Under the pieces are notes generated by a model that saw only the letters and a list, made by a program, of their open reading frames with translations, did not search any database and was not told where the DNA came from. 64,000 nt of DNA from Protonemura montana (lineage: Eukaryota > Arthropoda > Insecta > Plecoptera > Nemouridae). The number at the start of each line of letters is the position of its first letter. Position 1 is the first letter of the stretch. Positions 1,288-49,600 of this stretch are shown one piece after another. The stretch is from assembly GCA_947568835.1 (NCBI GenBank), contig OX387607.1:19123277-19187276 (forward strand), written 5' to 3'. The translations under genes and the position numbers were made by a program.

Positions 1288-2350
1288 TAAATTGCAAACG
1301 CTTGCAATGCGCGGGGTATTTTATTATTAGCATCACTATAACCGTCTCAAAAATTGATGTCCAAACGCGGACTCGAACCCCGATCTCCATCTGTCGCGGG
1401 TGTTGCTCTAACCAATTGAGCTACTTGGACCCCGATCTCCACCTGTCACGGGTGTTGCTCTAACCAATTGAGCTACTTGGACCCCGATCTCCACCTGTCA
1501 CGGGTGTTTCTCTAACCCATTGAGCTACTTGGACCCCGATCTCCACCTGTCACGGGTGTTGCTCTAACCAATTGAGCTACTTGGACCCCAATCTCCACCT
1601 GTCGCGGGTGTTGCTCTAACCAATTGAGCTACTTGGACCCCGATCTGCACCTGTCGCGGGTGTTGCTCTAACCAATTGAGCTACTTGGACCCCGATCTCC
1701 ACCTGTCGCGGGTGTTGCTCTAACCAATTGAGCTACTTGGACCTCGATCTCCACCTGTCGCGGGTGTTGCTCTAACCAATTGAGCTACTTGAACCCCGAT
1801 CTCCACCTGTCGCGGGTGTTGCTCTAACCAATTGAGCTACTTGGACCTCGATCTCCACCTGTCGTGGGTGTTGCTCTAACCAATTGAGCTACTTAGACCC
1901 CGATCTCCACCTGTCGCGGGTGTTGCTCTAACCAATTGAGCTACTTAGACTCCGATCTCCACCTGTCGCGGGTGTTGCTCTAACCAATTGAGCTACTTGG
2001 ACCCCGATCTCCACCTGTCGCGGGTGTTGCTCTAACCAATTGAGCTACTTGGACCCCGATCTCCACCTGTCGCGGGTGTTGCTCTAACCAATTGAGCTAC
2101 TTGGACCCCGATCTCCACCTGTCGCGGGTGTTGCTCTAACCAATTGAGCTACTTGGACCCCGATCTCCACCTGTCGCGGGTGTTGCTCTAACCAATTGAG
2201 CTACTTGGACCCCGATCTCCACCTGTCGCGGGTGTTGCTCTAACCAATTGAGCTACTTGGACCCCGATCTTCACTTGTCACGGGTGTCGCTCTAACCAAT
2301 TGAGCTACTTGGACACTGGCTTTTTGAGACGGTTATAGTGTTGTAAATAA
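1288..2350 (-). repeat. tRNA-derived SINE with 18-unit internal 52-bp tandem array
   Basis: On the - strand the element reads: inverted-repeat end, GCCAGTGTCC, then 18 units of 52 bp each holding the tRNA A-box-like TAGCTCAATTGGTTAGAGC. A single B-box-like GGTTCGAGTCC (complement near 1368-1380) closes it, followed by the SINE body with the opposite inverted-repeat arm. GAGCTACTTGGAC recurs from 1418 to 2302, exactly 17 x 52 bp. An A-rich run follows at 2348-2362. Confidence 0.9.
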
Positions 2351-2815: not shown

Positions 2816-3640
2816 GTCCAAGTAGCTCAATTGGTTAGAGCAACACCCGTGACAGGTGGAGATCGGGGTCCAAGAAGCTCAATTGGTTAGAGCAACACCC
2901 GCGACAGGTGGAGATCGGGGTCCATGTAGCTCAATTGGTTAGAGCAACACCCGCGACAGGTGGAGATCGGGGTCCAAGTAGCTCAATTGGTTAGAGCAAC
3001 ACCCGCGACAGGTGGAGATCAGGGTCCAAGTAGCTCAATTGGCTAGAGCAACACCCGCGACAGGTGGAGATCGGGGTCCAAGTAGCTCAATTGGTTAGAG
3101 CAACACCCGCGACAGGTGGAGATCGGGGTCCAAGTAGCTCAATTGGTTAGAGCAACACCCGTGACAGGTGGAGATCAGGGTCCAAGTAGCTCAATTGGTT
3201 AGAGCAACACCCGCGACAGGTGGAGATCGGGGTCTAAGTAGCTCAATCGGTTAGAGCAACACCCGCGACAGGTGGAGATCGGGGTCCAAGTAGCTCAATT
3301 GGTTAGAGCAACACCCGTGACAGGTGGAGATCGGGGTCCAAGTAGCTCAATTGGTTAGAGCAACACCCGCGACAAGTGGAGATCGGGGTCCAAGTAGCTC
3401 AATTGGTTAGAGCAACACCTGCGACAGGTGGAGATCGGGGTCCAAGTAGCTCAATTGGTTAGAGCAACACCCGCGACAGGCGGAGATCGGGGTCCAAGTA
3501 GCTCAATTGGTTAGAGCAACACCCGCGACAGTTGGAGATCGGGGTCCAAGTAGCTCAATTGGTTAGAACAACACCCGCGACAGTTGGAGATCGGGGTCCA
3601 AGTAGCTCAATTGGTTAGAGCAACACCCGCTTATCTAGCT
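2816..3640 (+). repeat. tRNA A-box 52-bp tandem array, 16 units
   Basis: Sixteen units (15 full plus a partial) of the 52-bp tRNA-like monomer, spaced exactly 52 bp, begin after GATGTCC at 2816. The array stops abruptly inside the last unit (ACACCCGC at about 3631) with no B box and no SINE tail. It lies about 60 bp upstream of the 3' splice site of the copy A exon, so it probably sits in that gene's intron. Confidence 0.9.
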
Positions 3641-3703
3641 TGGCTATAGTCTTGTGCCAACTCCCGACATCTGTTTTATTCTTCCTCCTTCTTCTGTCAA
3701 CAG

Positions 3704-3880
3704 TTGTTGTTCATTGCTGCGATTGGGTTCGTCATGTTCCTGACAGCTGGCGCTCTCATGTGTGAGACTTACACACTTTACAACCGAGAACCTCGACTGC
3801 TGGCCTCGGGAATCCTCGCGATATTCAACTCAGTGTTCTACTTGGGAGACGCATTCCTTACTTTCACCGAGAAGGAATGA
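3704..3880 (+). CDS. Snakeskin-like tetraspan membrane protein, copy A, last exon only
   Basis: Terminal exon of a small membrane protein. It follows a good 3' splice site (pyrimidine-rich tract, CAG at 3701-3703) and gives 58 codons plus TGA. The translation starts LLFIAAIGFVMFLTAGAL and ends AFLTFTEKE. It contains two hydrophobic helices (roughly residues 2-20 and 34-52) separated by a short charged loop, matching in length, phase 0 and pattern the last exons of copies C (58 codons) and D (59 codons). Exons 1 and 2 are not found in 1-3700 and presumably lie left of the window. Family placement rests on resemblance to the C-terminal half of insect Snakeskin (Ssk), a smooth septate junction protein. 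A generic MARVEL-like tetraspan is the alternative. Confidence 0.7.
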   Translation: MLFIAAIGFVMFLTAGALMCETYTLYNREPRLLASGILAIFNSVFYLGDAFLTFTEKE

Positions 3881-3956
3881 CGCGACAGAACGCGACGCAA
3901 CAACCTCAACAAGTTGTCTGATACCATCGAGTGTGAGGTTAGGTTTGAGAGAAAAC

Positions 3957-4165
3957 GTGAATGAAACTGCGTAAAAAATGGCCGCCAAATGACTACTTTA
4001 TTGCGAGAATTCTGTAGGATGCCGCCAGGTGGAGCCACCGTCGTGCGAAATTTAATTTTGAGACTTTTTGCAGATTACTCGCATTTGAAACTTGTTTACA
4101 CTCAATCAATCTTTATTAATGCTCACCTCAACGATTGATGAAAATGTATTGATATTTTGAGTTGT
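3957..4165 (+). repeat. One-armed copy of the 16.4-kb foldback element
   Basis: About 210 bp resemble one arm plus the loop of the inverted-repeat element at 16351-16765: the shared ATGGCCGCCAAATGACTAC, a GTGGAGCCAC block, and CTCAACGATTGAT near the loop. No second arm is present, so this is a truncated or diverged copy. Confidence 0.65.
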
Positions 4166-4195
4166 AATTATTTAATTGTAGAGGTTTGTTAAAAA

Positions 4196-4628
4196 GTACG
4201 GCAGCAAGCGCCATCTGGTGGCAGCTACCGTTACCACGTGTTGCCGGCCTCGTTTGCTCAGCGGCAAGCGCCATCTGGTGGCGCCTACCGTTACCACGTG
4301 TTGCCGGCCTCGTTTGCTCAGCGGCAAGCGCCATCTGGTGGCACCTACCGTTACCACGTGTTGCCGGCCTCGTTTGCTCAGCGGCAAGCGTCATCTGGTG
4401 GCACCTACCGTTACCTCGTGTTGCCGGCCTCGTTTGCTCAGCAGCAAGCGCCATCTGGTGGCACCTACCGTTACCTCGTGTTGCCGGCCTCGTTTGCTCA
4501 GCAGCAAGCGCCATCTGGTGGCACCTACCGTTACCACGTGTTGCCGGCCTCGTTTGCTCAGCAGCAAGCGCCATCTGGTGGCACCTACCGTTACTACGTG
4601 TTGCCGGCCTCGTTTGCTCAGCAGCAAG
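4196..4628. repeat. 60-bp array with seven CTCF-consensus motifs
   Basis: Seven units of exactly 60 bp. Each holds AGCGCCATCTGGTGG on the + strand, i.e. CCACCAGATGGCGCT on the - strand, which fits the CTCF core consensus. Motif starts: 4207, 4267, 4327, 4387 (one mismatch, C to T), 4447, 4507, 4567. All point the same way. Several units also contain CACGTG (E-box). Peptides predicted in all frames are repeat artefacts. The array lies between tetraspan copies A and B. Confidence 0.9.
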
Positions 4629-6404
4629 TTTAACATTACGTTCCCTCTCGAACCTACAAACTGAATTGTTGTGACGACGAAATGTGAACTGATTGAAGCT
4701 TCGCAAGAATGCCACGACGAGGAAGTGGCGCTGTTGTCGCTTGTGTTCTGTTTTCATTTGAAAGGAGATTGGTTGACGCATTTTGGGGACATCTTCAGGA
4801 CTGTCTAGCTCAGAAGGCAGTGGTTATTTTGTGCGTACGCTCACGCATCTTTTCTTGCAATAGTGTACGTCGATCACTCATTCCGGGAAAAGTTTGGTCT
4901 GCTCTGCATTTAAATTCAAGAAACACACGTTATTTTGGAAATGGTACTCAGCAGAACGTAGGTATAATCACAGAATCTTATCATTTTGAAAAATAAATGC
5001 CGAATACACTAGCTCATAATTATGACAACGCAAAGCGATAGCAAGACTAAACTTAGCTAAGCTCGGGCAACGCTAGCCTTTGTCAGGCAGCGCCGACAAA
5101 GCATAGCGAGAGTTTAGAAATTGTTTCAATGTTTTTCGCATTTTGGCACGGCTTCCTTGTTCCCCCCAAGAAAACATACGATCTAGAACAGCACCTGAAT
5201 TCAATTGAGATCAAACCCAACTGTTTCATTACAAACTAACCACTGGTCCCGACCCTAATGTCTGAGGAAACTTCGCTGAAACCTTTAGAAAACCAAGTCC
5301 AATTCAGGACTGAAAACCTCCAAAAATAAATAGCAAATACCGTAAAATCATGAAATTAATAGATGGCTTTATCGAAATGCGAAGATGAATGTGGTCCGGC
5401 AATGTGTCCAACTTACGGACAAAAAGTGAATAAAGACAGAATATTATAAACGTATGTCGCATGACGAGCATTTGGTTGGTCTGTTGTATCGGCTTTAAGA
5501 CTGGGAACTAACTTCGGTAGCTGGCAATTGAATGTCGGTCAGGGTTGTGTTTGCTTCATGTTGACTTATGCAACCGTTCACTTGAATTATCGATACATAT
5601 TTACAAATCAGTACATCCCCTTTATCACTTCGACCTTCATGCACTGCCCTCGACTGTCAACTGTCTGACAGGAACACACCTCATAAATAGCACAGCCGTG
5701 AAATAATTCCTGTCCATATATTTGTTCCTCGAACAAAACAGTGTCAAATTATTTCACTCTTTGCATGAAAGATTCGTCACTCGCAAAGATTGTCGTTCAT
5801 TGGCGACTTTTCTGTTCGGTAAAATCTGAACAAATCTAAGTGTGAATATTGTTTTGTTGCCACCAGCAAAATTACTTTTCCAATTATTATGGTTTTTGGA
5901 CTCGTGTCTGCTTTGCCTGACATTAGCAAGAGTTTTGACAAAAAAAATATACAACTGGGTTTTAAATGCTGAGTAAAAACGACTTATTTTTCACTAAATT
6001 AAGAAAATATAAGCTCGATCTTTATTAAGAATTCAAAACCTAGTTTAAATAGAGCTTGTCTATAATTTTCCAATTTGTTTCACATTCACTACGCAATAAT
6101 TAACAAATAAATAGTTTATAATGTAAGTGTTTTTAAATAAAAATAATTTGATTATTTATTGCGCCTGTCATTTGTTATCTGATTTCTGAAAGAATTTGTT
6201 TTATCTAGTTCGTCTCTGACTAGCGTTATCTCTGTGCACCCAATCCATTCTCATCAAGTCCAGTCTGGAGCTGGACAAAGACCAACAAGGTGAGTTGCTT
6301 GCTTCTCTCTCCTAACCACACTTGCCTAGTGTTCAATTAACTCCCCTAGTTCTCGTTTACTTCTTTTTGTCAATAATATTGTCAGATCTTTTGACTAAAT
6401 TAGT
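4629..6404. other. Noncoding spacer between copies A and B
   Basis: No gene supported. Short open frames (for example 4709-4996) have no homology I recognise and no splice context. A diverged foldback relative lies at 5880-6060; the rest is AT-rich. Confidence 0.5.
5880..6060 (+). repeat. Diverged copy of the palindromic foldback family
   Basis: ATGGTTTTTGGACTCGTGTC, then AACTGGGTTTTAAATGCTGAG and a weak complementary arm (AATTCAAAACCTAGTTTAAATA, about 6028-6050). It matches the layout of the elements at 32035-32210 and 37229-37415 but is more degraded. A half copy (AACTGGGTTTTAAATGCTAAG) occurs at about 7616-7640. Confidence 0.55.
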
Positions 6405-7428: not shown

Positions 7429-9397
7429 ATGGACTGCGATCTTCGCTTGCTGCTACACTGGCACAACGCAATCCACCTCATTCTACTCGTGAGTAGCTCG
7501 TGGTCGGACGCGCCAGGTCGAAGTTGAGGACATAAACACGTGTTCAGCTAATTTGGTTGAAATCCGAGCATCGTTCAGTGGCTGGAAACAGAAGTGATTT
7601 GAGAAAAACTATTTCAACTGGGTTTTAAATGCTAAGTGAAGGACAACTGAATTTCCCAACGTTTCGTAACATGTACCTGTTACTTCTTCAAAGTTAGAGC
7701 AGTCCTGACAATTTTCCGATAGCAAAAAAACTACATAAAATTATAACAATCACCAAGTTTGAGCTTTACGCATCTAAGAAATATAATCAGGGTCAATAAC
7801 TAAAAGACTAATGTGTTTTGTATTTTCTCAATTAAGATCTGAGTGCAGGGAGAGCTTTGATCACCTTGCATTATACATGGCAAGTAACCAGTAACCACTA
7901 TTAAACACCGCGCTGTTGCTGACAGCTTCTTGGGGTTACGAGTGCAACGATTCTTGCTCCTCGCGTCGCTGTCGATGACGTCACATCCGACACAGAGATC
8001 ATCTTCGCGGTGTTGCTTTGTCTGGTGGCGCTTCAAGTGGGGATCTTTGCAACCTACTACCGAGCTAACGCCGACCTCGGCAAGATGATCAACCTCGACA
8101 TAAAGCAACACTTTTACCTCGTAAGTCATTCAAACTGTTTCACCGAAAATACCGCTAGAATACCGAAGTTAAGCGACACTACCCTGGGTCAGGTATTGGA
8201 TGGGTGACCATCATACACATGACCAGTTCTGTTCGGGTGAGAGGTTGGTGGGATGGAAGTTAGGCAACACTGCGCTGGGTCAGGTATTGGATGGGTGACC
8301 ATCATACACATGACCAGTTCTGTTCGAGAGAAAGGTTGGAGGGATGGAAGTTAGGCAACACTGCGCTGGGTCAGGTATTGGATGGGTGACTATCATACAC
8401 ATGACCAGTTCTGTTCGGGAGAGAGGTTGGATGGATAAAAGTTAGGCAACACTGCGCTGGGTCAGGTATTGGATGGGTGACCATCATACACATGACCAGT
8501 TCTGTTCGGGAGAGAGGTTGGATGGATGAAAGTTAGGCAACACTGCGCTGGGTCAGGTATTGGATGGGTGACCATCATACACATGACCAGTTCTGTTCGG
8601 GTGAGAGGTTGGATGGATGAAAGTTAAGCAACACTGCACTGGGTCAGGTATAGGATGGGTGACCATCATACACATGACCAGTTCAGTTCGGGTGAGAGGT
8701 TGGAGGGATGAAAGTTAAGCAACACTGCACTGGGTCAGGTATTAGATGGGTGACCATCATACACATGACCAGTTCTGTTAGGGAGAGAGGTTGGAGGGAT
8801 GAAAGTTAGTACAGCAACTTCACTCGCCTTGCTTATCAACCTCTCGACAGCATGGATTTGTGGAGGAATCCTGTTGTTCGCGTTATACCGTCCTTCGGAA
8901 GGGATGAAAAGCCGGGTCCCCTTGGTCTTCCACTAGAGTAAGATACTTGCTGTCTCCGGGTATGCCGTCGTCTCTTCTAGGCTAGGTTAGGTTAGGCTAT
9001 CATCACCAGCTCATTGAACGTCGCCATTAGACAAGCACCACATGACCCGATGTCAAAAAAGTGCGTCTTCCTACAGCGTTGCGTCATCGCAGGTGTGGTC
9101 GGCGCACTCTACATCTGCGAGGGCAGTTTCCTGCTCACTCTAGCCACGACCGACGCCATTCTGCCGCTCGAGCTGGCGTCGGGCGTCGTCGCTCTAACTG
9201 CCGGCGTCGTGGCACTCGCTGAGTGCGTCGCCTCATGGCGCAGCGTCGCGGCATTCGACGCCGTGCAGACATCGACGTCACGCTACGCATGCCCGACGCC
9301 CTGGCTGCTTTGTTGTTGCCTAGCGACGCCGAGCAGCAGCGTCGGTCACGTGGGACAAACGACGGACTTGCCTCGTGGTGGCACACACCTAACCTAA
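7429..9397 (+). CDS. Snakeskin-like tetraspan membrane protein, copy B
   Basis: Three-exon model: 7429-7488 (60 nt), 7926-8120 (195 nt), 9077-9397 (321 nt including TAA), about 191 aa. Donors are GTGAGT and GTAAGT; both introns are phase 0. Exon 1 starts MDCDLRLLLHWHNAIHLILL. Exon 2 carries a helix around IIFAVLLCLVALQVGIFATY. Exon 3 begins RCVIAGVVGALYICEGSFLL and has a second helix in LELASGVVALTAGVVALAE, mirroring copies C and D. Odd points: about 45 extra residues at the C terminus (Cys/Thr/Ser-rich, ending GGTHLT), a poor pyrimidine tract before exon 2 (its start is the least certain part), and intron 2 almost wholly made of a 5S-derived SINE whose tail stops about 10 nt before the exon 3 acceptor. 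Function inferred only from paralogy: epithelial junction-type membrane protein. Confidence 0.6.
8160..9068 (+). repeat. 5S-derived SINE with 7 tandem 91-bp heads, in intron 2 of copy B
   Basis: Seven 91-bp units carry the 5S rRNA-like block GTTAAGCAACACTGCGCTGG followed by GGATGGGTGACC, then the shared tail from about 8805 (GTTAGTACAGCAAC, CGTCCTTCGGAAGG, TTAGGTTAGG, ATCATCACC, ending GATGTCAAAAAAGTGCGTC). The tail runs directly into the exon 3 splice acceptor TTCCTACAG. Confidence 0.85.
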
Positions 9398-14170: not shown

Positions 14171-17100
14171 ATGGCGGACGTGGCCGTGCTGGTCAAGACC
14201 CCGAACTTCGCGTTGAAAATCGTGGAATCGGTAAGCCTGTATTTCCAGCCGTTTCTAAGCAATTTCCAGAAAAATGTCATTTTCCAAGAGAAAAAGTGAA
14301 CGAGTTGCAGGTTTGCGAAAAAAGCCTCCTATTGGTTTGTTTCATTCAAGAATAAACGAAAAATAGGATTTGTTTTAGTTGAGAAAGATTGAGCTCAATT
14401 GTTTTGATCAAAACTTTTTCACTCTACTTTACCCGTTTACACGAAACAAGTTCTTGATGTTTCAAATGACTCATTCACAAATCACTCCACAAATCCATGC
14501 CGTCGAGAGGTTGATAAGCAAGGCGAGTGAAGTTGCTGAACTAACTTTCATCTCTCCAACCTCTCTCCCGAACAGAACTGGTCATGTGTATGATGGTCAC
14601 CCATCCAATACCTGACTCAGCGCAGTGTTGCTTAACTTTCATCCCTCCAACCTCTCTCCCGTACAGAACTGGTCATGTGTATGATGGTCACCCATCCAAT
14701 ACCTGACCCAGCGCAGTGTTGCTTAACTTCGGTGATCTCACAAGGACCAGTGTGTCCAACACACCAAACCGTTCGCTTTTTACATGTTTAACCAGAAAAT
14801 GCACACTTTGCGTAATTCCATTAAGTAGAAGTGAGGTATTAATGGTTGTTGACAATCTTTACGGGCACAGAATATAAACACAGAGCACGTAAGATCCTTA
14901 AGTTTTAAGAGTTTTTAAGAGTAAGAGTTTTAAGATCCTTGTGTGCTATGCTTGTGCTTATTGCTCTGTCAATTGTGTGCAGTCCCATATGATAACCAAG
15001 TTTTAAAATCCTTGTGTGCTATGCTTGTGCTTATTGCTATGTCAATTGTGTGCAGTCCCATATGATTACCAAGTTTTAAGATCCTTGTGTGCTATGCTAG
15101 TGCTTATTGCTATGTCAATTGTGTGCAGTCCCATATGATAACCAAGTTTTAAGATCCTTGTGTGCTATGCTTGTGCTTATTGCTATGTCAATTGTGTGCA
15201 GTCCCATATGATAACCAAGTTTTAAGATCCTTGTGTGCTATGCTTGTGCTTATTGCTATGTCAATTGTGTGCAGTCCCATATGATAACCAAGTTTTAAGA
15301 TCCTTGTGTGCTATGCTTGTGCTTATTGCTATGTCAATTGTGTGCAGTCCCATATGATAACCAAGTTTTAAGATCCTTGTGTGCTATGCTTGTGCTTATT
15401 GCTATGTCAATTGTGTGCAGTCCCATATGATAACTAAGTTTTAAGATCCTTGTGTGCTATGCTTGTGCTTATTGCTATGTCAATTGTGTGCAGTCCCATA
15501 TGATAACCAAGTTTTAAGATCCTTGTGTGCTATGCTTGTGCTTATTGCTATGTCAATTGTGTGCAGTCCCATATGATAACCAAGTTTTAAGATCCTTGTG
15601 TGCTATGCTTGTGCTTATTGCTATGTCAATTGTGTGCAGTCCCATATGATAACCAAGTTTTAAGATCCTTGTGTGCTATGCTTGTGCTTATTGCTATGTC
15701 AATTGTGTGCAGTCCCATATGATAACCAAGTTTTAAGATCCTTGTGTGCTATGCTTGTGCTTATTGCTATGTCAATTGTGTGCAGTCCCATATGATAACC
15801 AAGTTTTAAGATCCTTGTGTGCTATGCTTGTGCTTATTGCTATGTCAATTGTGTGCAGTCCCATATGATAACCAAGTTTTAAGATCCTTGTGTGCTATGC
15901 TTGTGCTTATTGCTATGTCAATTGTGTGCAGTCCCATATGATAACCAAGTTTTAAGATCCTTGTGTGCTATGCTTGTGTTATGCCAATTGTTAGCAGATC
16001 TTTAGGCTGACGACATGCTCCAAGAAGGCTCGATCACTGATTGGCTCAGACTCGATTCTGTTCTAGGTTTTTAATTTGCTGATTATCTGCCTGATTATCG
16101 ATGGCATCTGGATCGGCGACAATGTCCCTAAGATGGCCACCATCTACGGGACCATCATCGGGTTCTTCATGATCTCTATCATCTTCATTCTGCTCTACGT
16201 TTTGGACACTCCTCCTCATAAGACAGTTGTAAGTGTTTGAACAGAGTCATTCTATCTCTGTCCCTCTTATCACTGCCTTTGGCTCGTTCCGACTTGCTTT
16301 TACGGATCATTTTGGTTTTTATCTATTTTCATACATGCAATAGAATAGAACCGTTGAGTGTAGGTTATAGGGAGAGTTTCAACGTCAATGTTAAAGTCTC
16401 TGCGTGAAAAAAGACTACCTTACCGACAAAAATGCAGAGTACCGGACAATCACGTTAAGTGGAGCCACTGTCGTATGAATTTTAATTTCGATATTTCTCG
16501 TAGGTTAACTCACTTTTGAAACTTTTTATGCTCAAAAAATCTTCATCAATGTTTACCTCAACGATTGATACACATGTAACGATATTCATAAGCGAGTAAC
16601 CTACTATAAAAATCGAAATTAAATTTCATACGACAGTGGCTCCACTTAACGTGATTGTCCGGTACTCTGCATTTTTGTCGGTAAGGTAGTCATTTGGCGG
16701 CCATCTTTCACGCAGAGACTGTAACATTGACGTTGAAACTTTACCTAGAACCTACACTCAACGATAGAACTTAAGGTAACAACATTGAAGGTGTTGATAA
16801 TGTTGAGTATGGAAATGATTTTCCTATCTCTGGTCGGGAATGCGAACGATTAGAAAAATTCTGAAATTTCTGAAAAAAACACACACAAAAATATCAATTT
16901 TTTTTTTTTTGAAAATCTGAAAGTTAACAATATTTGCAGAAAAGGAATTCTTCGGAAATAATTTTAAGCAAAATCTTCCCGAGATTAACGCAGTTTAACA
17001 ACGTTTTTTAAAGTGAAACTTAGTTTTGGAATCATGCGTTCTGATTAGAGTCATGACTTGCGATGGGAAAACCATTTTCTTCCTTAATTTTCCTTAAACG

Positions 17101-21586: not shown

Positions 21587-23503
21587 ATGGCCGCTATTGG
21601 AGAACTTCTCAAGAAACCGAGTGTGGGGTTGAAGATTGTCGAGTTGGTACGTATTTCTGTTTCACTTGATATTGTTTTCAACTTAAATTCATTGTTTGAC
21701 ATTTTGCGAACATTTCAAAGGTTGAAAAAAGTAATTACACAGAAACTCACACAAAAAAAAATATAAACTGTAATTGAAAGCTGAAATTAATTCATGAAGC
21801 CTGTGTTCTGCCACATGAAACAAATTTGACTAACGAAGGTTCAAACAAAAACATGCTAACCAGCAAAACAAAACATTTTCATTTGAAATCTGCGCTCAAA
21901 ACCGTTCTTTTCTTGTTTCACGTTTGATTGAGAGAATATCAAATCTTGAACCTAAACTGAGTTTAAACTAAGTTTAGCCTGATGTTGTTGACGTAGAGTC
22001 TCAGGGCTGGTGAAGGTTAGTTAATTTAGAGATGGTTAATGAACGACAGAGTGCTTCAACTAAGAGCTTCGATAGCTAAACATTCCTGTTACACTCTAAA
22101 TACGAACTGCACATACATAACTCAATTACCCAATTATCGTACCGGCAACAATGTTTACGTTCTCATCAATTCTCATCAAATAAACTAAAATCCTCACAAA
22201 TGTGACATGTCCAAGTAGCTCGATTGGTTAGAGCAACACCCGCGATAGGTGGAGATCGGGGTCCAAGTAGCTCAATTGGTTAGAGCAACACCCGCGACAG
22301 GTGGAGATCGGGGTCCAAGTAGCTCAATTGGTTAGAGCAACACCCGCGACAGGTGGATATCGGGGTCCAAGTAGCTCAATTGGTTAGAGCAACACCCGCG
22401 ACAGGCGGAGATCGGGGTCCAAGTAGCTCAATTGGTTAGAGCAACACCCGCGACAGGTGGAGATCGGGGTCCAAGTAGCTCAATTGGTTAGAGCAACACC
22501 CGCGACAGGCGGAGATCGGGGTCCAAGTAGCTCAATTGGTTAGAGCAACACCCGCGACAGGTGGAGATCGGGGTCCAAGTAGCTCAATTGGTTAGAGCAA
22601 CACCCGCGACAGGTGGAGATCGGGGTTCAAGTAGCTCAATTGGTTAGAGCAACACCCGCGACAGGCGGAGATCGGGGTCCAAGTAGCTCAATTGGTTAGA
22701 GCAACACCCGCGACAGGTGGAGATCGGGGTCCAAGTAGCTCAATTGGTTAGAGCAACACCCGCGACAGGTGGAGATCGGGGTTCGAGTTCCCGCTTAGGC
22801 AACAATATTGCGAGGTTATTGGTGTTCCTATTTTAAATTTGATTTAAATTACAAATGCTTGCAGTAAGCAAAGTGTTTCATTATTAAGAACACAAGGGCA
22901 CCAACTTTTGAGACGTTTATAAGTCAAGGTATTGTTTGTATTGCAGCTGTTCGGCGTGATCAGCATAGCCGTGGTCATCGATGGTTACCCGGTCGCTTTA
23001 ACCTACCCGAAGATAGCGACAATCTATGGGACACAGATAGGCTTTGTCATGATAGGCATGATAATCATCATGAGCTACCTAATGGAAACACCTCTGCACA
23101 AGAGCATCGTGAGTATCAATATCCACTGGTTGGACACAACCTGGCCAACTTAACTTAACCTAACCTAACCTACTATAACCTTACCTAACCTAACCTAACC
23201 TACTATAACCTTGCCTCACTTAACCTAACCTCACAAAACCGAATGTCACTTAATCTTATCTAACTTAGCATACCCCAACCCAGCCGTGAAGTGATCTTGA
23301 GCTAATCGATGACCATGTCCTTCCAGCTAATAACTGTCTCGGGTATTGGAGCTGTAATGTGGATCACCGCCGGGGCTCTGATCATAGACTTCTACGTCGC
23401 GTACTCCATAGTACTCGAAGTCAGACTGGCCGTATCGGGCGCATTCGCCATCATCAACGGCGTCCTATACCTTGTAGACGCAGCGCTCTCTTTCAAGAGC
23501 TAG
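21587..23503 (+). CDS. Snakeskin-like tetraspan membrane protein, copy D
   Basis: Three exons: 21587-21646 (60 nt), 22947-23108 (162 nt), 23327-23503 (177 nt including TAG), 132 aa, all introns phase 0. Donors are GTACGT and GTGAGT; acceptors TTGCAG and TTCCAG. Exon 1 encodes MAAIGELLKKPSVGLKIVEL. Exon 2 contains KIATIYGTQIGFVMIGM and ETPLHK, matching copy C. Exon 3 has helices at AVMWITAGALII and SGAFAIINGVLYLVDAAL. Four membrane helices, short cytosolic ends and the YLVDAAL motif fit Snakeskin-like/MARVEL-like tetraspans. Intron 1 holds an 11-unit tRNA-like array; intron 2 (218 bp) holds AACCT repeats. The most compact and complete copy of the cluster. Confidence 0.87.
22205..22800 (+). repeat. 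tRNA A-box 52-bp array, 11 units, with terminal B box
   Basis: Eleven units (CCAAGTAGCT at 22211 to 22731, 10 x 52 bp). Only the last unit continues into a B-box-like GGGGTTCGAGTTCCCGC (about 22778-22794). It lies in intron 1 of copy D, sense orientation. Confidence 0.9.
23145..23225 (+). repeat. AACCT-rich interstitial tract
   Basis: Imperfect repeats of TAACC/TAACCTAACC with ACTATAACC interruptions in intron 2 of copy D; complement of the TTAGG telomere-type motif. Confidence 0.6.
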
Positions 23504-26924: not shown

Positions 26925-28665
26925 AACTAGCCAAGAAGGGAGGAGGAGAAACCCAGTGCCGGCACGTAGCCTACTCCTGTCAAAGACCAAGGGGACCACC
27001 GGCTTAACGTCCCTTCCGAAAGACGGTACAACGCGAACAACAGGATTCCTCCACAAATCCATGCTGCCGAGAGGTTAATAAGCAAGGCGAGTGAAGTTGC
27101 TGTACTAACTTTCATCCCTCCAACCTCTCTCCCGAACAGAACTGGTCATGTGTATGATGGTCACTCATCCAATACCTGACCCAGCGCAGTGTTGCTTAAC
27201 TTTCATCCCTCCAACCTCTCTCCCAAACAGAACTAGTCATGTGTATGATGGTCACCCATCCAATACCTGACACAGCGCAGTGTTGCTTAACTTTCATCCC
27301 TCCAACATCTCTCCCTAACAGAACTGGTCATGTGTATGATGGTAACCCATCCAATACCTGACCCAGCGCAGTGTTGCTTAACTTTCATCCCTCCAACATC
27401 TCTCCCAAACAGAACTGGTCATGTGTATGATGGTCATCCATCCAATACCTGACCCAGCGCAGTGTTGCTTAACTTTCATCCCTCCAACATCTCTCCCAAA
27501 CAGAACTGGTCATGTGTATGATGGTCATCCATCCAATACCTGACCCAGCGCAGTGTTGCTTAACTTTCATCCCTCCAACATCTCTCCCAAACAGAACTGG
27601 TCATGTGTATGATGGTCACCCATCCAATATCTGACCCAGCGCAGTGTTGCTTAACTTTCATCCCTCCAACATCTCTCCCAAACAGAACTGGTCATGTGTA
27701 TGATGGTCATCCATCCAATACCTGACCCAGCGCAGTGTTGCTTAACTTTCATCCCTCCAACCTATCTCCCTAACAGAACTGGTCATGTGTATGATGGTAA
27801 CCCATCCAATACCTGACCCAGCGCAGTGTTGCTTAACTTTCATCCCTCCAACATCTCTCCCTAACAGAACTGGTCATGTGTATGATGGTAACCCATCCAA
27901 TACCTGACCCAGCGCAGTGTTGCTTAACTTTCATCCCTCCAACATCTCTCCCAAACAGAACTGGTCATGTGTATGATGGTCATCCATCCAATACCTGACC
28001 CAGCGCAGTGTTGCTTAACTTTCATCCCTCCAACCTATCTCCCGTACAGAACTTGTCATGTGTATGATGGTCACCCATCTAATACCTGACCCAGTGCAGT
28101 GTTACTTAACTTTCATCCCTCCAACATCTCTCCCAAACAGAACTGGTCATGTTTATGATGGTCACCCATCCAATACCTGACTCAGCGCAGTGTTGCTTAA
28201 CTTTCATCCCTCCAACCTATCTCCCTAACAGAACTGGTCATGTGTATGATGGTAACCCATCCAATACCTAACCCAGCGCAGTGTTGCTTAACTTTCATCC
28301 CTCCAACATCTCTCCCTAACAGAACTGGTCATGTGTATGATGGTAACCCATCCAATACCTGACCCAGCGCAGTGTTACTTAACTTTCATCCCTCCAACAT
28401 CTCTCCCAAACAGAACTGGTCATGTTTATGATGGTCACCCATCCAATACCTGACTCAGCGCTGTGTTGCTTAACTTTCATCCCTCTAACCTCTCTCCCGA
28501 ACAGAACTGGTCATGTTTATGATGGTCACCCATCCAATACCTGACTCAGCGCTGTGTTGCTTAACTTTCATCCCTCCAACCTCTCTACCAAACAGAACTG
28601 GTCATGTGTATGATGGTCACCCATCCAATACCTGATTCAGCGCAGTGTAGCTTAACTTTCAGCCC
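26925..28665 (-). repeat. 5S-derived SINE with 17 tandem 91-bp heads
   Basis: Tail at about 26925-27115, then 17 units of 91 bp (AGTGTTGCTTAAC from about 27189 to 28645, 16 x 91). Variants (GGTAACCC, GGTCATCC, TTTATGATGG) occur in runs, implying repeated multi-unit copying. The 5S 5' end is missing at the right edge. Confidence 0.9.
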
Positions 28666-28909
28666 CCAAGATAAATGCGTATCAAGGTCATATTTTGGTG
28701 AAGATTGACGGGTTTATAAAGATGTCAGACTCCTTGAATCTCTCTTAGCTCATAAATAAATGTTAAGATGTTCATGCGTTCACTTTGACAGTTCTCTGTA
28801 CTAATCGATTGCTTAGATTTTATTTTGACAATCTTCCCATAGAAAGTTGTAGCTTCATAAATCTTCAGATTTCCAATCTTTCAAACCAGACAAACACCCA
28901 GTTTCTTGG

Positions 28910-29300
28910 ATGAAATCTTATTTAAATTGCAAACGCTTGCAATGCGCAGGGTATTTTATTATTGTGAACACTATAACCGTCTCAAAAATTGATGCCCAAA
29001 CGGGGACTCAAAACCCGATCTCCACCTGTCGCGGGTGTTGCTCTAACCAATTGAGCTACTTGGACCTCGATCTCCACCTGTCGCGGGTGTTGCTCTAACC
29101 AATTGAGCTACTTGGACCCCGATCTTCACCTGTCGCGGGTGTTGCTCTAACCAATTGAGCTACTTGGACCCCGATCTCCACCTGTCGTGGGTGTTGCTCT
29201 AACCAATTGAGCTACTTGGACCCCGATCTCCACCTGTCGCGGGTGTTGCTCTAACCAATTGAGTTACTTGGACACTGGCTTTTTGAGACGATTTTAGTGT
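28910..29300 (-). repeat. tRNA-derived SINE with five 52-bp units
   Basis: SINE body (TTGCAAACGCTTGCAATGCGC complement) and inverted-repeat arm at 28910-28995, five tRNA-like units (29053-29261, 4 x 52 bp), then GGACACTGGCTTTTTGAGACG. Same architecture as 1288-2350. Confidence 0.9.
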
Positions 29301-30284: not shown

Positions 30285-31285
30285 ACCGAGGTTAAGCAAC
30301 ACTGTGCTGGGCCAGGTATTGGATGGGTGACCATCATACACATGACCAGTTCTGTTCGGGAGAGAGGTTGGAGGGATGAAAGTTAAGCAACACTGCGCTG
30401 GGTCAGGTATTGGATGGGTGACCATCATACACATGACCAGTGCTGTTCGGGAGAGAGGTTGGAGGGATGAAAGTTAAGCAACACTGCGCTGAGTCAGGTA
30501 TTGGATGGGTGACCATCATACACATGACCAGTTCTGTTCGGGAGAGAGGTTGGAGGGATGAAAGTTAAGCAACACTGCGCAGGGTCAGGTATAGAATGGG
30601 TGACCATTATACACATGACCAGTTCTGTTCGGGAGAGAGGTTGGAGGGATGAAAGTTAAGCAACACTGCGCTAAGTCAGGTATTGGATGGGTGACCATCA
30701 TACACATGACCAGTTCTGTTCGGGAGAGAGGTTGGAGGGATGAAAGTTAAGCAACACTGCGCTGGGTCAGGTATTGGATGGCTGACCATCATACACATGA
30801 CCAGTTCTGTTCGGGAGAGAGGTTGGAGGGATGAAAGTTAAGCAACACTGCGCTGGGTCAGATATTAAAAGGGTGACCATCATACACATGACCAGTTCTG
30901 TTTGGGAGAGAGGTTGGAGGGATGAAAGTTAAGCAACACTGCACTCGGTCAGGTATTGGATGGGTGACCATCATACACATGACCAGTTCTGTTTGGGAGA
31001 GAGGTCGGAGGGATGAAAGTTAGTACAGCAACTTCACTCGCCTTGCTTATCAACCTCTCGACAGCATGGATTTGTGGAGGAATCCTGTTGTTCGCGTTGT
31101 ACCGTCCTTCGGAAGGGACGTTAAGCCGGTGATCCCCTTGGTCTTCGATAGGAGTAGGCTACGTGTCGGCACCGGGTTTCCCATTCTCCCTTCTAGGCTA
31201 GGTTAGGATCATCATCATCCACGTATTTACCAGTCCCACATGGCTCGTTGTCAAAACAGTGCGTCGTTAAACACAACAAATAAAA
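30285..31285 (+). repeat. 5S-derived SINE with 8 tandem heads and full tail
   Basis: Eight 91-bp units (30290-31018), then the tail to about 31285 (GTGCGTCGTTAAACACAAC). It begins with CACCGAGGTTAAGCAACAC; the first 40 or so 5S-like positions are missing. Confidence 0.9.
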
Positions 31286-32334: not shown

Positions 32335-33445
32335 TGTTTAACGACGCATTGATTTGACAACTGGTCATGTGGCACTGGTCTAATAGCGTCGGTGAATGAG
32401 TGGATGATGATGAGGATGATGATGAACCTAACCTAGCCTAGAAGGAAGAAGAGTAAACCCGGTGCCGGCACGTAGCCTACTCCTGTCGAAGACCAAGGGG
32501 ACCACAGGCTTAACGTCCCTTCTGAAGGACGGTACAACGCGAACAACAGGATTCCTCCACAAATCCATGCTGTCGAGAGGTTGATAAGCAAGGCGAGTGA
32601 AGTTGCTGTACTAACTTTCATCCCTCCAACCTCTCTCCCGAACAGAACTGGTCATGTGTATGATGGTCACCCATCTAATACCTGACCCAGCGCAGTGTTG
32701 CTTAACTTTCATCCCTGCAACCTCTGTCCCGAACAGAACTGGTCATGTGTATGATGGTCACCCATCCAATACCTGACTCAGCGCAGTGTTGCTTAACTTT
32801 CATCCCTCCAACCTCTGTCCCGAACAGAACTGGTCATGTGTATGATGGTCACCCATCCAATACCTGACTCAGCGCAGTGTTGCTTAACTTTCATCCCTCC
32901 AGCCTCTCTCCCGAACAGAACTGGTCATGTGTATGATGGTCACCCATTCAATACCTGACCCAGCGCAGTGTTGCTTAACTTTCATCCCTGCAACCTCTGT
33001 CCCGAACAGAACTGGTCATGTGTATGATGGTCACCCATCCAATACCTGACTCAGCGCAGTGTTGCTTAACTTTCATCCCTCCAACCTCTGTCCCGAACAG
33101 AACTGGTCATGTGTATGATGGTCACCCATCCAATACCTGACCCAGCGCAGTGTTGCTTAACTTTCATCCCTCCAACCTCTCTCCCGACCAGAACTGGTCA
33201 TGTGTATGATAGTCACCCATCCAATACCTGACCCAGCCCAGTGTTGCTTAACTTTCATCCCTGCAACCTCTGTCCCGAACAGAACTGGTCATGTGTATGA
33301 TGGTCACCCATCCAATACCTGACTCAGCGCAGTGTTGCTTAACTTTCATCCCTCCAACCTCTCTCCCGAACAGAACTGGTCATGTGTATGATGGTCAGCC
33401 ATCCAATACCTGACCCAGCGCAGTGTTGCTTAACTTCGGTGATCT
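32335..33445 (-). repeat. 5S-derived SINE with 9 tandem heads
   Basis: Complete tail at 32335-32620 (GTTTAACGACGCA, ATGATGATGA, AAGCCTG-type block), then nine 91-bp units (GCTTAAC at 32699 to 33427, 8 x 91) and the start of the 5S-like head (CGGTGATCTCACG), where it breaks. Confidence 0.9.
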
Positions 33446-36000: not shown

Positions 36001-36540
36001 AGAGGAGGGGAAACCCGGTGCCGGCACGTAGCCTACTCCTGTCGAAGAGCACCAAGGGGACCACCGGCTTAACGTCCCTTCCGAAGGACGGTACAACTCG
36101 AACAACAGGATTCCTCCACAAATCCATGCTGTCGAGAAGTTGATAAGCAAAGCGAGTGAAGTTGGTGTCGAGAGGTTGATAAGCAAGGCGAGTGAAGTTG
36201 CTGTACTAACTTTCATCCCTCCAACCTCTCTCCCGAACAGAACTGGTCATGTGTATGATGGTCACCCATCCAATACCTGACTCAGCGCAGTGTTGCGTAA
36301 CTTGCATCCCTCCAACCTCTCTCCCGAACAGAACTGGTCATGTGTATGATGGTCACCCATCCAATACCTGACTCAGCGCAGTGTTGCGTAACTTGCATCC
36401 CTCCAACCTCTCTCCCGAACAGAATTGGTCATGTGTATGATGGTCACCCATCCAATACCTGATTCAGCGCAGTGATGCTTAACTTTGGTGATCGCACGAG
36501 GACCGGTGTTTCCAACACGCCAAACAGTTCGGTAGCTCGC
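36001..36540 (-). repeat. 5S-derived SINE, 3 heads, near-complete
   Basis: Tail 36001-36215 (a 45-bp duplication of GTCGAGAAGTTGATAAGC-type sequence is present), three 91-bp units, and the 5S-like 5' end (TTTGGCGTGTTGGAAACACC, complement near 36495-36530). Confidence 0.88.
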
Positions 36541-38548: not shown

Positions 38549-41500
38549 CTAGAGATAAAGATCGAAGTCTATACGCTGCGACGTGTAGAATTCTCCCTCC
38601 TGACCGCATTTTCTAACCCAGACTTCTTTCTTGAAGAAACCCTCGTCAACCCAGGCCTGCATCTCAGATGAGGAGTGGGGGCCGTGAACGTCTGAACTGC
38701 CCTTCTCCCACTTAAACTCCCAGCGTAGTTCTGTAGGCATGACAACAATCCGTTAGCAACATAACAGTCCGTTAGCAACATAACAATCCGTTAGCAACAT
38801 AACAGTCCGTTAGCAACATAACAATCCGTTAGCAACATAACACTCCGTTAGCAACATAACACTCCGTTAGCAACATAACACTCCGTTAGCAACATAACAA
38901 TCCGTTAGCAACATAACACTCCGTTAGCAACATAACACTCCGTTAGCAACATAACACTCCGTTAGCAACATAACAATCCGTTAGCAACATAACACTCCGT
39001 TAGCAACATAACAATCCGTTAGCAACATAACAGTCCGTTAGCAACATAACAATCCGTTAGCAACATAACACTCCGTTAGCAACATAACAATCCGTTAGCA
39101 ACATAACAGTCCGTTAGCAACATAACAATCCGTTAGCAACATAACAATCCGTTAGCAACATAACACTCCGTTAGCAACACAACAATCCGTTAGCAACATA
39201 ACAGTCCGTTAGCAACATAACAATCCGTTAGCAACATAACACTCCGTTAGCAACATAACAATCCGTTAGCAACATAACAATCCGTTAGCAACATAACACT
39301 CCGTTAGCAACATAACAATCCGTTAGCAACATAACAGTCTGTTAGCAACATAACACTCTGTTAGCAACATAACACTCTGTTAGCAACATAACACTCCGTT
39401 AGCAACATAACACTCTGTTAGCAACATAACACTCCGTTAGCAACATAACAATCCGTTAGCAACATAACAGTCCATTAGCAACATAACAATCCGTTAGCAA
39501 CATAACAGTCCGTTAGCAACATAACACTCCGTTAGCAACATAACACTCCGTTAGCAACATAACAATCCGTTAGCAACATAACAATCCGTTAGCAACATAA
39601 CACTCTGTTAGCAACATAACACTCCGTTAGCAACATAACACTCTGTTAGCAACATAACAATCCGTTAGCAACATAACAATCCGTTAGCAACATAACAGTC
39701 CGTTAGCAACATAACAGTCCATTAGCAACATAACAGTCCGTTAGCAACATAACACTCCGTTAGCAACATAACACTCCGTTAGCAACATAACAATCCGTTA
39801 GCAACATAACACTCCGTTAGCAACATAACACTCTGTTAGTAAAATCTTCAATTTCTCTTGCCCTAGATTTTTTGCACTCCAGCGGGTAAACCCCTTCTGC
39901 GATTTGAACCAAATTTACAGAGAACATTTTTGTTTTCTCCGCTCAGACCTGCCACGTTTTGGAGAAACGGTAAAATAGTTGAGAAGCTTTGAACAATTGA
40001 CAAAGTAGGATTTTGGTTACTTGAGCACGAACAAACGGGCCGACAAGAGCTACCGAAGATTTGACTACGCTATTCAATAACCCTCTGTTATCAAATTAAT
40101 TGTTAACCTTTAGTTTCGGATGTAGCCGCCGCCCCTTCTTGCTCCTCTATCCTCGGCTTCTTGGCAGCCGGTGGTTCTGATTGGCTGGTCTCCGCACGTT
40201 GCTTTTCCTTCGAGTCAAAGTCGTCAGCGTACATGTCTAGGTCACCCGACTGCCCCGCGGTCGGTGCCGAGAGCAAGCATTTCATGGAACTCTTCTCGGC
40301 CAACTTGATCTGCAAAACAAGTTGATGTCATTCTACAACCATTGCTGCAGTTGCCCATCATTACCATTCATTACCAGACCATTACCAGACCATTACCAGA
40401 CCATTACAGATCATCGAGGTCACATAGCTTTACAGGGCTACATATTCCTTCTGATGGTTAAACAAGCTCAAACCAGTAAGCAAAGAAGGGAAACTGAGCT
40501 AGGCTCGACAAATCAAAGACTGATTAGTATTTCATAGATAAATTAGATTCACTAACAGTTTGGCGTGTTGGAAACACCGGTTCTCGATAGATCACTAAAA
40601 TTAAGCAATACTGCGCTGGGTCATGTATTGGATGGGTGACCATCATACACATGACCAGTTCTGTTCGGGAGAGAGGTTGGAGGGATGAAAGTTAAGTAAC
40701 ACTGCGATGGGTCAGGTATTGGATGGGTGACCATCATACACATGACCAGTTCTGTTCGGGAGAGAGGTTGGAGGGATGAAAGTTAAGTAACACTGCGATG
40801 GGTCAGGTATTGGATAGGTGACCATCATACACATGACCAGTTCTGTTCGGGAGAGAGGTTGAAGGGATGAAAGTTAGTACAGCAACTTTACTCGCCTTGC
40901 TTATCAACCTCTCGACAGCATGGATTTGTGGAGGAATCCTGTTGTTCGCGTTGTACCGTCCTTCTGAAGGGACGTTAAGCCGGTGGTCCCCTTGGTGCTC
41001 TTCGACAGGAGTAGGCTAAGTGCCGGCACCGGGTTTCTCCTCCTCCCTTCTTGGCTAGGTTAGGTTCATCATCATCCTCATAATCGTCCACCGACGCCAT
41101 TAGACCAGTGCCACATGGCCAGATGTCAAAACAGTGTCTTTAACACCAGAAATAATAATTAAATAGATTCCAGGAAACATGACAGACCAGGTGGTCTATG
41201 TGGACGTTAAATTAGCATCCAAGAGCTGCTAAATACTTGTCCATATGAGTGTTTGCAACCACTTTCCCTTTGAAGGAATCTTTTATCCGACCACACGAAG
41301 CTGGAATCTGCTTGTCTGGATAGTTCAGTTGGTACAACACCAGACCGGTTTCTATCCCGGTTCAGTTGCACATTCCTTCAGTCTAGCTTTCTTCCGTCAT
41401 TGGATTAATTTCTCAACTTGTATCCAAGGTTTTCAGCGCCATGTTTGTGATATATTTTCATTCCCCCAATAAACACATAGTTAAATGCTCATTTTTCGTA

Positions 41501-46613: not shown

Positions 46614-49600
46614 ATGTTAAAGTCAGCACCTGGAGCTACAGAAATGAGTTCACCTGAAGACGCATTGGTTGCTAATCGATTAGAACCCATAGAAATATTC
46701 TTGGAACAGCCTGATGGATCCAAAGTTCGCATATCGTTTTTGGCAAGCGGAGAGATCGAAGGGGTTCCGCAAATAATGCCTGAAACGTACGAGCTTGTTT
46801 CGAATGCTGAAGAAAATTCTAGTTCTCTTGCCCTCAAAGACTCTGATGTACATACCACATTTGTCAGCCCAGAAGGGTCTCAACACATCTCAACGATTCA
46901 AACACCCGATGGCCAAATCTACTACTTTGAATCTAATCCTCCATTGAAAACAGAGAAAGATGGCCTGGGAGAAGCCCCAATTTTCTATACGCTACTGCCA
47001 AAAGATTTGTTCTCTTCAACGGACTGTGAGCCTGCCTCTCTAAAGCAGTGGACAGAAGATGAGCTTTCAAAGGAAGATACAAAGGATAATGTCTACTCTA
47101 ATGCAAGAGAGAGACTCAAACCATTTGTCACAGTTCATAAAGCAAGGAGGCGCATGGAATCGACCATTACACAAATAGGTAAGTAAAAGTGAATAGCTTT
47201 GGCTTTCCAATTAGTCTTAGGTATTAATTAATTAGTCTCAGCATTCATGTTAAACTTTCTGCTGAGCAAGCAAGCCTACAACTTGAGGTTACTTTGGCAG
47301 CCAATTGTGGCTGTTAGTCTTAATCAAACTCTAATATGAAACAACTGCGGCTAAAAAAATGGATGAATGCGCATCACTTTGCAAAATCTGATTTAAATTG
47401 CAAATGCTTGTGTTGTAAGTAATGTAAAATAAATGTAAGTAATCTGATAGAAATGAAAAGATGAAATTTGTTAAGACTCGAAATGATGCAGACTCCATCT
47501 CTATTATTGTCAGTAATAAGAAGTAATTGGTTGCTATTTTTTGCAAAGACAGTTGAACATTAATTCTGATTCTTTATTTAATTGGAAACTGACTGTAATT
47601 TCTTTACCATGATAAATATAATACCAAGATACCTATTGGGTAGGTAGTAGACTTTATAACTGTGTAGTAATTTTTGGAATGATATCTAATGTAAATACTG
47701 TCTTGGCAAAAGTAACTATGAAAGAAACTTTCCACTGGCAGGTGGGGACCTTCACTTAGAAGCTAAAATGGCTGCTCGTGCAGCACTTCTTCCTGCTCCA
47801 GTAAGAGGTTATCGAGGTTCTGGTCCACGAGTCGGGCAAAACAACAAATGTAATGGAAAGTGCTCTTTATGTGAAGAAAAATGTGCAGAGTGTGGTGAAA
47901 AATCTAGTGATAAATCTGGAGACAAATGCAATGACAACTGCAATGACAAGTCAGGGGACAAAAGCAATAAAAAATGCTCAAAATGTGGTGGAAAATGTTC
48001 AAAGTGTAGTGAAAAATGTGATAAAAGTGCGTATCGCTGCGATATGTGCGATGCTTCTTTCTCTCGAGCTGCTCAGTTCTACGGTCACTCTAAAGCACAT
48101 ACTGGAGAACGCAGACTACGATGTCAACTCTGTACAGACAACAAGGTTTTTATAATCATTATAGATTTTTATCCGATTTTACCAAAATCTTGCCACCTAG
48201 TTCAAGTGTTAGTTGAAACTGTTAACATGACGACTTCCAATCACAAGCAGTGAAATTCAGATGTTTCTGTGATTTAAAAACCAACTACTAGATCAAAATT
48301 TTGGTAAAACCTACGTTATTTGTCATAAGATACAAACAATGCCGAAAATTGTCAATTATATAGAAATCATTTTGTTAAGCACTAAATACCTCTCAAACAC
48401 TATTGCTTTAAACAAAGGAATCGAACCCCAAAATGTGCTAACATTATCTCAAAAATTGCATGTACACACTCAATTGGTTAGGGCAACACCTGTGCGTGTA
48501 GAGATCGGGGTCCAAGTAGCTCAATTGGTTAGAGCAACACCCGCGACAGGTGAAGATCGGGGTCCAAGTAGCTCAATTGGTTAGAGCAACACCCGCTACA
48601 GGTGGAGATCGGGGTCCAAGTAGCTCAATTGGTTAGAGCAACACCCGCGACAGGTGGAGATCGGGGTCCAAGTAGCTCAATTGGTTAGAGCAACACCCGC
48701 TACAGGTGGAGATCGGGGTCCAAGTAGCTCAATTGGTTAGAGCAACACCCACGACAGGTGGAGATCGGGGTCCAAGAAGCTCAATTGGTTAGAGCAACAC
48801 CTGTGACAGGTGGAGATGGAGATCTAAATAGCTCAATTGGTTAGAACAACACCCGCGACAGGCGGAGATTGGAGTTGGAGTCCCCGTTGGAGCATTCATT
48901 TTTGAGATGCTATTACTGTTTCCAACAACAACATAGGTACTTCGTTCATTGCAAGTTAAGTCATATTTAACATTAAGCAATTGTCACATTTTGATTCCCC
49001 TGGTAACCTGTCACTTGCATTTTCAGGTGTTTGCTGCGCACGCTCAGCTGCTCCAACACGAGCGCGCTTGCCACGTCAGCGTACGCTCGCACGTGTGCAA
49101 CTCGTGCAGTGCAACCTTCGAGCGTCCTTCACAGCTGGCAAACCACAGGCGCAGCTTCCACTTGAAGGTAATCAGATAAAACACTATTGACATAGCAACA
49201 AGCACAAGCATAGCACACAAGGATCTTAAAACTTGGTTATCATATGGGACTGCACACAATTGACATAGCAATAAGCACAAGCATAGCACACAAGGATCTT
49301 AAAACTTGGTTATCATATGGGACTGCACACAATTGACATAGCAATAAGCACAAGCATAGCACACAAGGATCTTAAAACTTGGTTATCATATGGGACTGCA
49401 CACAATTGACATAGCAATAAGCACAAGCATAGCACACAAGGATCTTAAAACTTGGTTATCATATGGGACAGCACACAATTGACATAGCAATAAGCACAAG
49501 CATAGCACACAAGGATCTTAAAACTTGGTTATCATATGGGACTGCACACAATTGACATAGCAATAAGCACAAGCATAGCACACAAGGATCTTAAAACTTG

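What the first reader, a model, noticed from the sequence alone, without database searches (positions are those of the whole stretch)
4196..4628. Seven tandem CTCF-consensus sites at exact 60-bp spacing
Seen directly: CCACCAGATGGCGCT (- strand) is perfect in six of seven 60-bp units, all in one orientation, between two tetraspan paralogues. Established: this fits the vertebrate and insect CTCF core. Inference: the array may be a strong insulator or loop anchor that separates regulation within the gene cluster. Tandem consensus CTCF sites born by minisatellite expansion would be unusual.
Basis: partly seen in the sequence, partly recalled or inferred. Interest (0 to 1): 0.75.

Follow-up and report, generated by a model that had tools for sequence, protein, structure and literature searches.

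The report
Transposon-borne minisatellite with CTCF-like motif
A run of seven near-identical "CTCF sites" in what looks like an insect genome is the internal repeat of a common transposon-like element, most copies of which carry a base that breaks the site, so the array is best read as an ordinary repeat and not as a demonstrated chromosome insulator.

Summary
In detail: seven 60-bp units at 4201-4628, motif exact in six. The genome encodes a CTCF orthologue. The insulator reading is not supported. The array is the internal minisatellite of a dispersed MITE-like element (about 3925-4668) with imperfect inverted ends; a short direct repeat bounds the unit, so it probably arose by slippage (inference). 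A 20-mer of the unit, any base at column 16, occurs 1,639 times in the genome; only 130 have the T that makes the CTCF core. In 335 units from 20 other arrays the three most variable of 60 columns lie in the motif, column 16 first, though motif and spacer overall do not differ significantly (p 0.19). Of 233 exact motif sites I fetched 30; 24 were compared and are repeat-borne, 6 are so placed by spacing. Against this: the window array is the most motif-rich of 21. I read it as a chance expansion of a minority variant. CTCF may still bind; no occupancy data exist. New member of a known kind: tandem-repeat-containing MITEs. In passing: CTCF here may have alternative exons for zinc fingers 3-4.

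The parts
3925..4668 (+). MITE-like dispersed element that holds the array (left module, 7.1 units, right tail); ends approximate
   Evidence: Left module and right tail recur beside the unit in other arrays and in single-unit copies; inverted ends score 40 against a maximum of 28 in 500 shuffles; termini placed
3925..4200 (+). left module of the element
   Evidence: 40 scored matches (window included) of 3,717 first-look candidates; the 39 others are 81-86% identical
4201..4628 (+). 60-bp minisatellite, 7.1 units
4629..4668 (+). right tail of the element with the right inverted end
4201..4208 (+). GCAGCAAG at the start of the unit; an imperfect repeat of it follows the unit in single-unit copies, the likely slippage points
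   Evidence: sequence; in most single-unit copies printed GCMGCAAG or close to it before and GCAGAAAG or close to it after, read by eye
4621..4628 (+). GCAGCAAG at the end of the array
4207..4221 (-). CTCF-like motif, unit 1, exact
4267..4281 (-). CTCF-like motif, unit 2, exact
4327..4341 (-). CTCF-like motif, unit 3, exact
4387..4401 (-). CTCF-like motif, unit 4, one mismatch
4447..4461 (-). CTCF-like motif, unit 5, exact
4507..4521 (-). CTCF-like motif, unit 6, exact
4567..4581 (-). CTCF-like motif, unit 7, exact
3650..3880 (+). probable last exon of a tetraspan-like (weak MARVEL) gene; its stop lies 44 bp before the element
16352..16763 (.). foldback relative of the left module in the same window, without the 60-bp array; 7-bp flanking duplication ATAGAAC at 16345-16351 and 16764-16770, read by eye
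47234..47542 (-). possible old, decayed copy of the element without an array
   Evidence: weak matches of left module (E 7e-4) and tail (E 3e-4) in order; inverted ends as good in 1 of 500 shuffles

Best explanation
The array is the internal minisatellite of a MITE-like, non-autonomous transposable element that is present in very many copies. The 60-bp unit is a single-copy part of many copies of the element, bounded by a short imperfect direct repeat; slippage or unequal exchange between these repeats most likely made it tandem in some copies (inferred from the boundaries). The arrays then expanded and were homogenised (inferred). In this copy the founder unit carried T at column 16, a minority variant, which makes the - strand read as a good CTCF core; expansion copied it into all seven units (inferred). 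No selected insulator function is needed. Incidental CTCF binding is possible and untested.
For: Dispersed family: 119 matching pieces, window included, 40 of 651 candidates scored, on C3, C5, C11, C13, C14 and C15, 90-98% identical outside the window. Shared flanks and single-unit copies. Inverted ends of the window copy 0 of 500 shuffles. Exact 20-mer context with any base at column 16: 1,639 sites; with T: 130. In 335 units from 20 other arrays column 16 is G 0.75, T 0.18, A 0.06, C 0.01 and is the most variable of 60 columns; the next two (17 and 9) are also in the motif; mean minor-base frequency 0.038 in the motif (0.023 without column 16), 0.016 in the spacer. In 20 copies picked by the left module and not by the motif, none shows the exact 15-mer in the 221 bases fetched; 19 have a unit, with G at column 16 of the first unit in 16 and T in 3 (L086 is truncated and was read by eye). 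Units of different arrays are more alike than the adjoining modules in 55 of 55 pairs of 11 arrays chosen from 21.
Against: The window array is the most motif-rich of the 21 arrays examined: 6 of 7 units exact, against at most 4 in any other, and T in 7 of 7. Over all columns motif and spacer do not differ significantly (Mann-Whitney p 0.19); only the direction and column 16 speak against conservation. Target-site duplications are not consistent: of 43 copies tried, 33 passed the filter, the window copy shows none, and the two exact short repeats found there (8 bp in L056, 7 bp in L061) sit at left ends that seem misplaced inside the module. The arrays were found with this array as query, which favours similar ones.
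Confidence: 0.86

Rival explanations
1. A true CTCF array: the T-type units bind CTCF and insulate the tetraspan-like gene from its neighbours, a transposon minisatellite co-opted as a boundary.
For: Six exact consensus motifs in one orientation; CTCF orthologue present; T in 7 of 7 units here against 130 of 1,639 sites in the genome; tandem CTCF-bound arrays exist in mammals (DXZ4, start of the abstract of PMC3491370 in the listing).
Against: Motif columns are not more conserved than the spacer, and a core base is the most variable column in the family; units within one array descend from each other, so 7 of 7 is not seven independent events (inference); the element lies 44 bp after a stop codon, where an insertion may be easily tolerated (inference).
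Confidence: 0.06
2. The motif is a transposase-binding site: the CTCF likeness reflects a sequence shared by several inverted-repeat elements of this genome, multiplied in tandem as in Galileo/Tetris-type elements. This can hold together with the best explanation.
For: Other repeats (L010, L014, L020, L030, L049) carry AGCGCCATCTGGTGG or AGCGCCACCTGGTGG after a similar GTGTTAA/GTGCTAA stretch; Tetris paper passages say that Galileo's internal tandem repeats hold additional transposase-binding sites; the window copy shows a weak inverted pair, 75 of 2,000 shuffles as good.
Against: No inverted pair in the consensus of single-unit copies (1,192 of 2,000 shuffles as good); the loci were chosen because they hold the motif; no transposase was sought or identified.
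Confidence: 0.2
3. A simple local minisatellite unrelated to mobile DNA.
For: The window has 57 Tandem Repeats Finder rows, so repeat expansion is rife here.
Against: The same unit with the same flanks at many places on several contigs, also as single units.
Confidence: 0.02

Closest known systems
Tandem-repeat-containing MITEs (Donax trunculus, Satovic and Plohl 2013; title seen in the reference list of PMC5615363; paper not read)
   Same: By its title and by recall: short dispersed element with an internal tandem array
   Different: Insect-like genome, 60-bp unit with a CTCF-like variant; target-site duplication and superfamily unsettled here
Tetris / DAIBAM / Galileo foldback elements of Drosophila (PMC4079207, passages seen)
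   Same: Internal tandem repeats of a foldback element that seed satellite-like arrays; a foldback relative in this window with a 7-bp flanking duplication
   Different: Tetris repeats are about 220 bp and lie in the inverted repeats; no transposase or sequence homology was shown here
DXZ4 macrosatellite of mammals (PMC3491370, start of abstract in the listing)
   Same: Tandem array associated with CTCF sites
   Different: DXZ4 is bound by CTCF on the inactive X; here binding is unknown and most family members lack the core base
CTCF sites of Drosophila and vertebrates (PMC3491045, passages seen)
   Same: The T-type motif fits the degenerate core CCASYAGRKGGCRSY (core recalled)
   Different: No preferential conservation, no occupancy evidence, repeat-borne

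Membership tests
CTCF-bound insulator array | Motif fits the CTCF core | tested here: met
   6 of 7 units exact; the core consensus itself is recalled
CTCF-bound insulator array | A CTCF orthologue in the genome | tested here: met
   C4:8086800-8091300, pieces in order at 40-76% identity to the human finger region, query residues 10-265 of 314
CTCF-bound insulator array | Motif kept better than its surroundings | tested here: not met
   Top three variable columns of 60 lie in the motif; overall difference from the spacer p 0.19; T in 130 of 1,639 sites
CTCF-bound insulator array | CTCF occupancy and a contact-domain boundary | not testable with these tools
   No ChIP or Hi-C data
Tandem-repeat-containing MITE | Dispersed, high copy number | tested here: met
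   1,639 sites of a 20-mer of the unit; 3,717 first-look candidates for the left module, 40 scored
Tandem-repeat-containing MITE | Terminal inverted repeats | tested here: met
   Window copy 0 of 500 shuffles; left end poorly matched in many other copies
Tandem-repeat-containing MITE | Target-site duplication | tested here: inconclusive
   7-bp ATAGAAC around the foldback relative at 16352-16763; none consistent among the 33 of 43 copies that passed, window copy included
Tandem-repeat-containing MITE | Internal repeat of varying copy number, single-unit copies known | tested here: met
   7 to 33 units counted in 21 arrays; single-unit copies
P/Galileo-type foldback superfamily | Related transposase with THAP domain | not tested
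   No transposase search was made

The most novel reading that the evidence does not exclude
A transposon minisatellite whose rare T variant was fixed in this one array because it creates seven CTCF sites: a boundary made by tandem expansion, with more than a thousand G-type relatives in the same genome as natural non-binding controls.
Probability: 0.05. Interest if true: 0.65.

Novelty: new member of a known kind. Interest (0 to 1): 0.2.

Why it matters
It shows how a striking regulatory-looking array can be made by chance when a transposon repeat expands, and why a motif must be read against its repeat family. If the T-type arrays do bind CTCF, the family is a ready natural experiment: the same 60-bp unit in T, G and A states at many places, so CTCF occupancy could be compared base for base.

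Tried and rejected
Loss of CTCF: the first search with human zinc fingers 1-11 gave 27-44% identity in its listed rows (the list was cut and 126 of 944 candidates were scored). I translated the six best; two look like Kr-h1 and Kruppel by recalled resemblance. This suggested loss. A second search with fingers 3-8 found an exon-split candidate (73% and 52% pieces on C4), borne out, so loss was dropped.

Motif enrichment as a sign of CTCF use: 598 matches to CCASYAGRKGGCRSY against 22 for the reversed control could mean genuine use. Of the first 30 exact sites fetched (L009-L038, all on C1 and C2, out of 233), 8 match the MITE unit. Of the other 22, one search compared 16 (its output was cut): 9 lie in repeats that share sequence with one another (L010-L012, L020, L024, L028, L030 as one set; L014, L015 as a second set, alike at the motif to L049-L051), and 7 (L032-L038) in repeats that match each other, with Pfam RVT_1 shown for L032 only. 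Six (L021-L023, L025-L027) were not compared and are put with L020/L024/L028 by their 1,707-bp spacing alone. The other 203 sites were not classified. Of seven further loci of the degenerate pattern (L045-L051), two have the motif in the MITE unit (L045, L048), three are L049-L051, L046 has it beside an element but outside it, and L047 matched nothing that I compared.

An inverted motif pair as a general feature of the element: not significant in the single-unit consensus. Target-site duplications: no consistent result. A published account of alternative CTCF finger exons: one search, 8 papers listed; I saw passages of one (PMC2749850), which uses 'mutually exclusive' in another sense, and did not open the other seven for this. 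Organism: not named; an insect by recalled resemblance of the two zinc-finger proteins; I did not use the protein-database search.

Full report
The observation. The array is real and stands as described: 4201-4628, period 60, 7.1 copies; CCACCAGATGGCGCT on the - strand exact in six units and with one mismatch in the fourth. The window's genome is held (258,480,905 bases in 34 contigs; window = C5:19123277-19187276), which allowed the family to be studied.

A dispersed family. The array matches 119 pieces, its own included, on six contigs, 90-98% identical outside the window, from 40 scored of 651 candidates. I fetched 20 other arrays with flanks, from the top of that list, and cut out their units: 342 with the window's seven. 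In most of the 21 the flanks next to the array are alike: a left module ending GGTTTGTTAAAAAGGACG or close to it, and a right tail beginning TTTAACATTAACGCTG or close to it; a few arrays (for example L057, L063, L071 on the left) lack the left module. Single-unit copies of the same layout exist. The window copy runs from about 3925 to 4668, 44 bp after the stop at 3880, with imperfect inverted ends (score 40, best of 500 shuffles 28). A foldback relative without the array lies at 16352-16763 with a 7-bp flanking duplication. The first look for the left module found 3,717 candidates, of which 40 were scored. This is the anatomy of a MITE-like element with an internal tandem repeat. The superfamily is not settled: among the 33 of 43 copies that passed the filter target-site duplications were not consistent, and the window copy shows none.

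How the unit became tandem. In most single-unit copies printed, the unit starts with GCMGCAAG or close to it and is followed by GCAGAAAG or close to it (by eye); many arrays begin and end in register with this short repeat. Slippage or unequal exchange between the two is the simplest origin (inference). Units of different arrays (median 96% identical) are more alike than the adjoining left modules (median 73%) in 55 of 55 pairs of 11 arrays chosen from the 21 (the module figure includes badly aligned stretches, with values down to 41%), so the arrays are younger than the insertions or have been homogenised between places (inference).

The CTCF-like motif is a minority state. In 335 units of the 20 other arrays column 16 is G in 0.75, T in 0.18, A in 0.06 and C in 0.01; only T gives the CTCF core on the - strand, G gives CCACCCGATGG. 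Genome-wide, CCATCNGGTGGCACCTACCG occurs 1,639 times, with T 130 times. In 20 copies chosen by their left module (20 of the 39 hits outside the window), none shows the exact 15-mer in the 221 bases fetched; the first unit has G in 16 and T in 3 (the three are on C5), and one copy has no unit (L086 read by eye; L085 and L086 fit the degenerate core by eye). The three most variable columns of 60 (16, 17, 9) lie in the motif; the mean minor-base frequency is 0.038 in the motif, 0.023 without column 16, and 0.016 in the spacer; over all columns the difference is not significant (p 0.19). Against my reading: the window array is the richest in exact motifs of the 21 (6 of 7, others at most 4) and has T in all seven units. 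Units copied from each other are not independent, so I take this as a founder effect, but selection is not excluded.

The motif elsewhere. The 15-mer occurs 233 times, reversed control 0; the degenerate core 598 times, control 22. I fetched the first 30 exact sites, all on C1 and C2: 8 match the MITE unit; 16 others were compared and lie in repeats, 9 of them in repeats that share sequence with one another and 7 in a repeat of which one copy has a reverse transcriptase; 6 were placed by their regular spacing only. In L032 the motif seems to lie in an open frame upstream of the reverse transcriptase (by eye). The other 203 sites were not classified. As far as seen, enrichment of the word comes from repeats and is not evidence of CTCF use.

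CTCF itself. It is present: C4:8086800-8091300 holds pieces matching the human fingers in order, 1-3 (62%), 3-4 (76%), a second 3-4 (71%), 5-6 (70%) and 6-10 (40%) (printed output cut). A paper's passages call CTCF ubiquitous in arthropods (PMC5094011), and another's say that fly motifs resemble vertebrate ones (PMC3491045). Binding at the array is thus possible. That the A of the CAG in the core matters for binding is recalled and was not tested.

Side finding. The two finger 3-4 exons of CTCF are separated by only 59 bases, have AG acceptors, and GT (first) and GC (second) donors; over 46 residues they differ at 10, with the zinc ligands kept (counted by hand). By recalled numbering the second has N where the first and human have R at helix position 6 of finger 4. 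This looks like a mutually exclusive exon pair; expression is unknown, and one literature search did not show it described (8 papers listed, one seen by passages).

Verdict. An ordinary transposon-borne minisatellite that most likely by chance shows a clean CTCF core. New member of a known kind (tandem-repeat-containing MITEs, known to me by title and recall; Tetris as a foldback source of satellites, PMC4079207 passages). Interest low, with a small residual chance of co-option.

Noticed in passing
L084 (C4:8086800-8091300), 1397-1539 and 1592-1735 approximately: The CTCF gene has two tandem versions of the exon for zinc fingers 3-4, 59 bases apart, both with intact zinc ligands; the second has a GC donor and differs at a likely DNA-contact position of finger 4 (position recalled). 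Possible mutually exclusive exons.
   Followed up: partly
window 1377-2314, 2816-3630, 22209-22782, 29014-29273, 48469-48869: 52-bp minisatellites made of part of a tRNA-like sequence; three of the four Rfam tRNA matches in the window lie at an edge of such an array.
   Followed up: no
window 8166-8809, 14542-14729, 27106-28669, 30291-31022, 32612-33436, 36207-36485, 40597-40876, 51584-51895: 91-bp minisatellites made of part of 5S rRNA; four of the five full-length 5S matches in the window overlap one of them.
   Followed up: no
window 1-64000: Minisatellite units of 26, 34, 41, 52, 73 and 91 bp each recur at two or more places in the window, so internal expansion of dispersed elements may be a general habit of this genome.
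   Followed up: no
window 55839-64000: A 55-bp tandem array of over 8 kb reaches the end of the window.
   Followed up: no
C13:1.1-3.4 Mb and other contigs: Most of the 40 scored copies of the element's left module lie on C13 at 1.1-3.4 Mb, and many of the arrays lie within a few megabases of contig ends.
   Followed up: no
G000 C1:19.77-19.84 Mb: A large cluster of C2H2 zinc-finger matches in one orientation.
   Followed up: no
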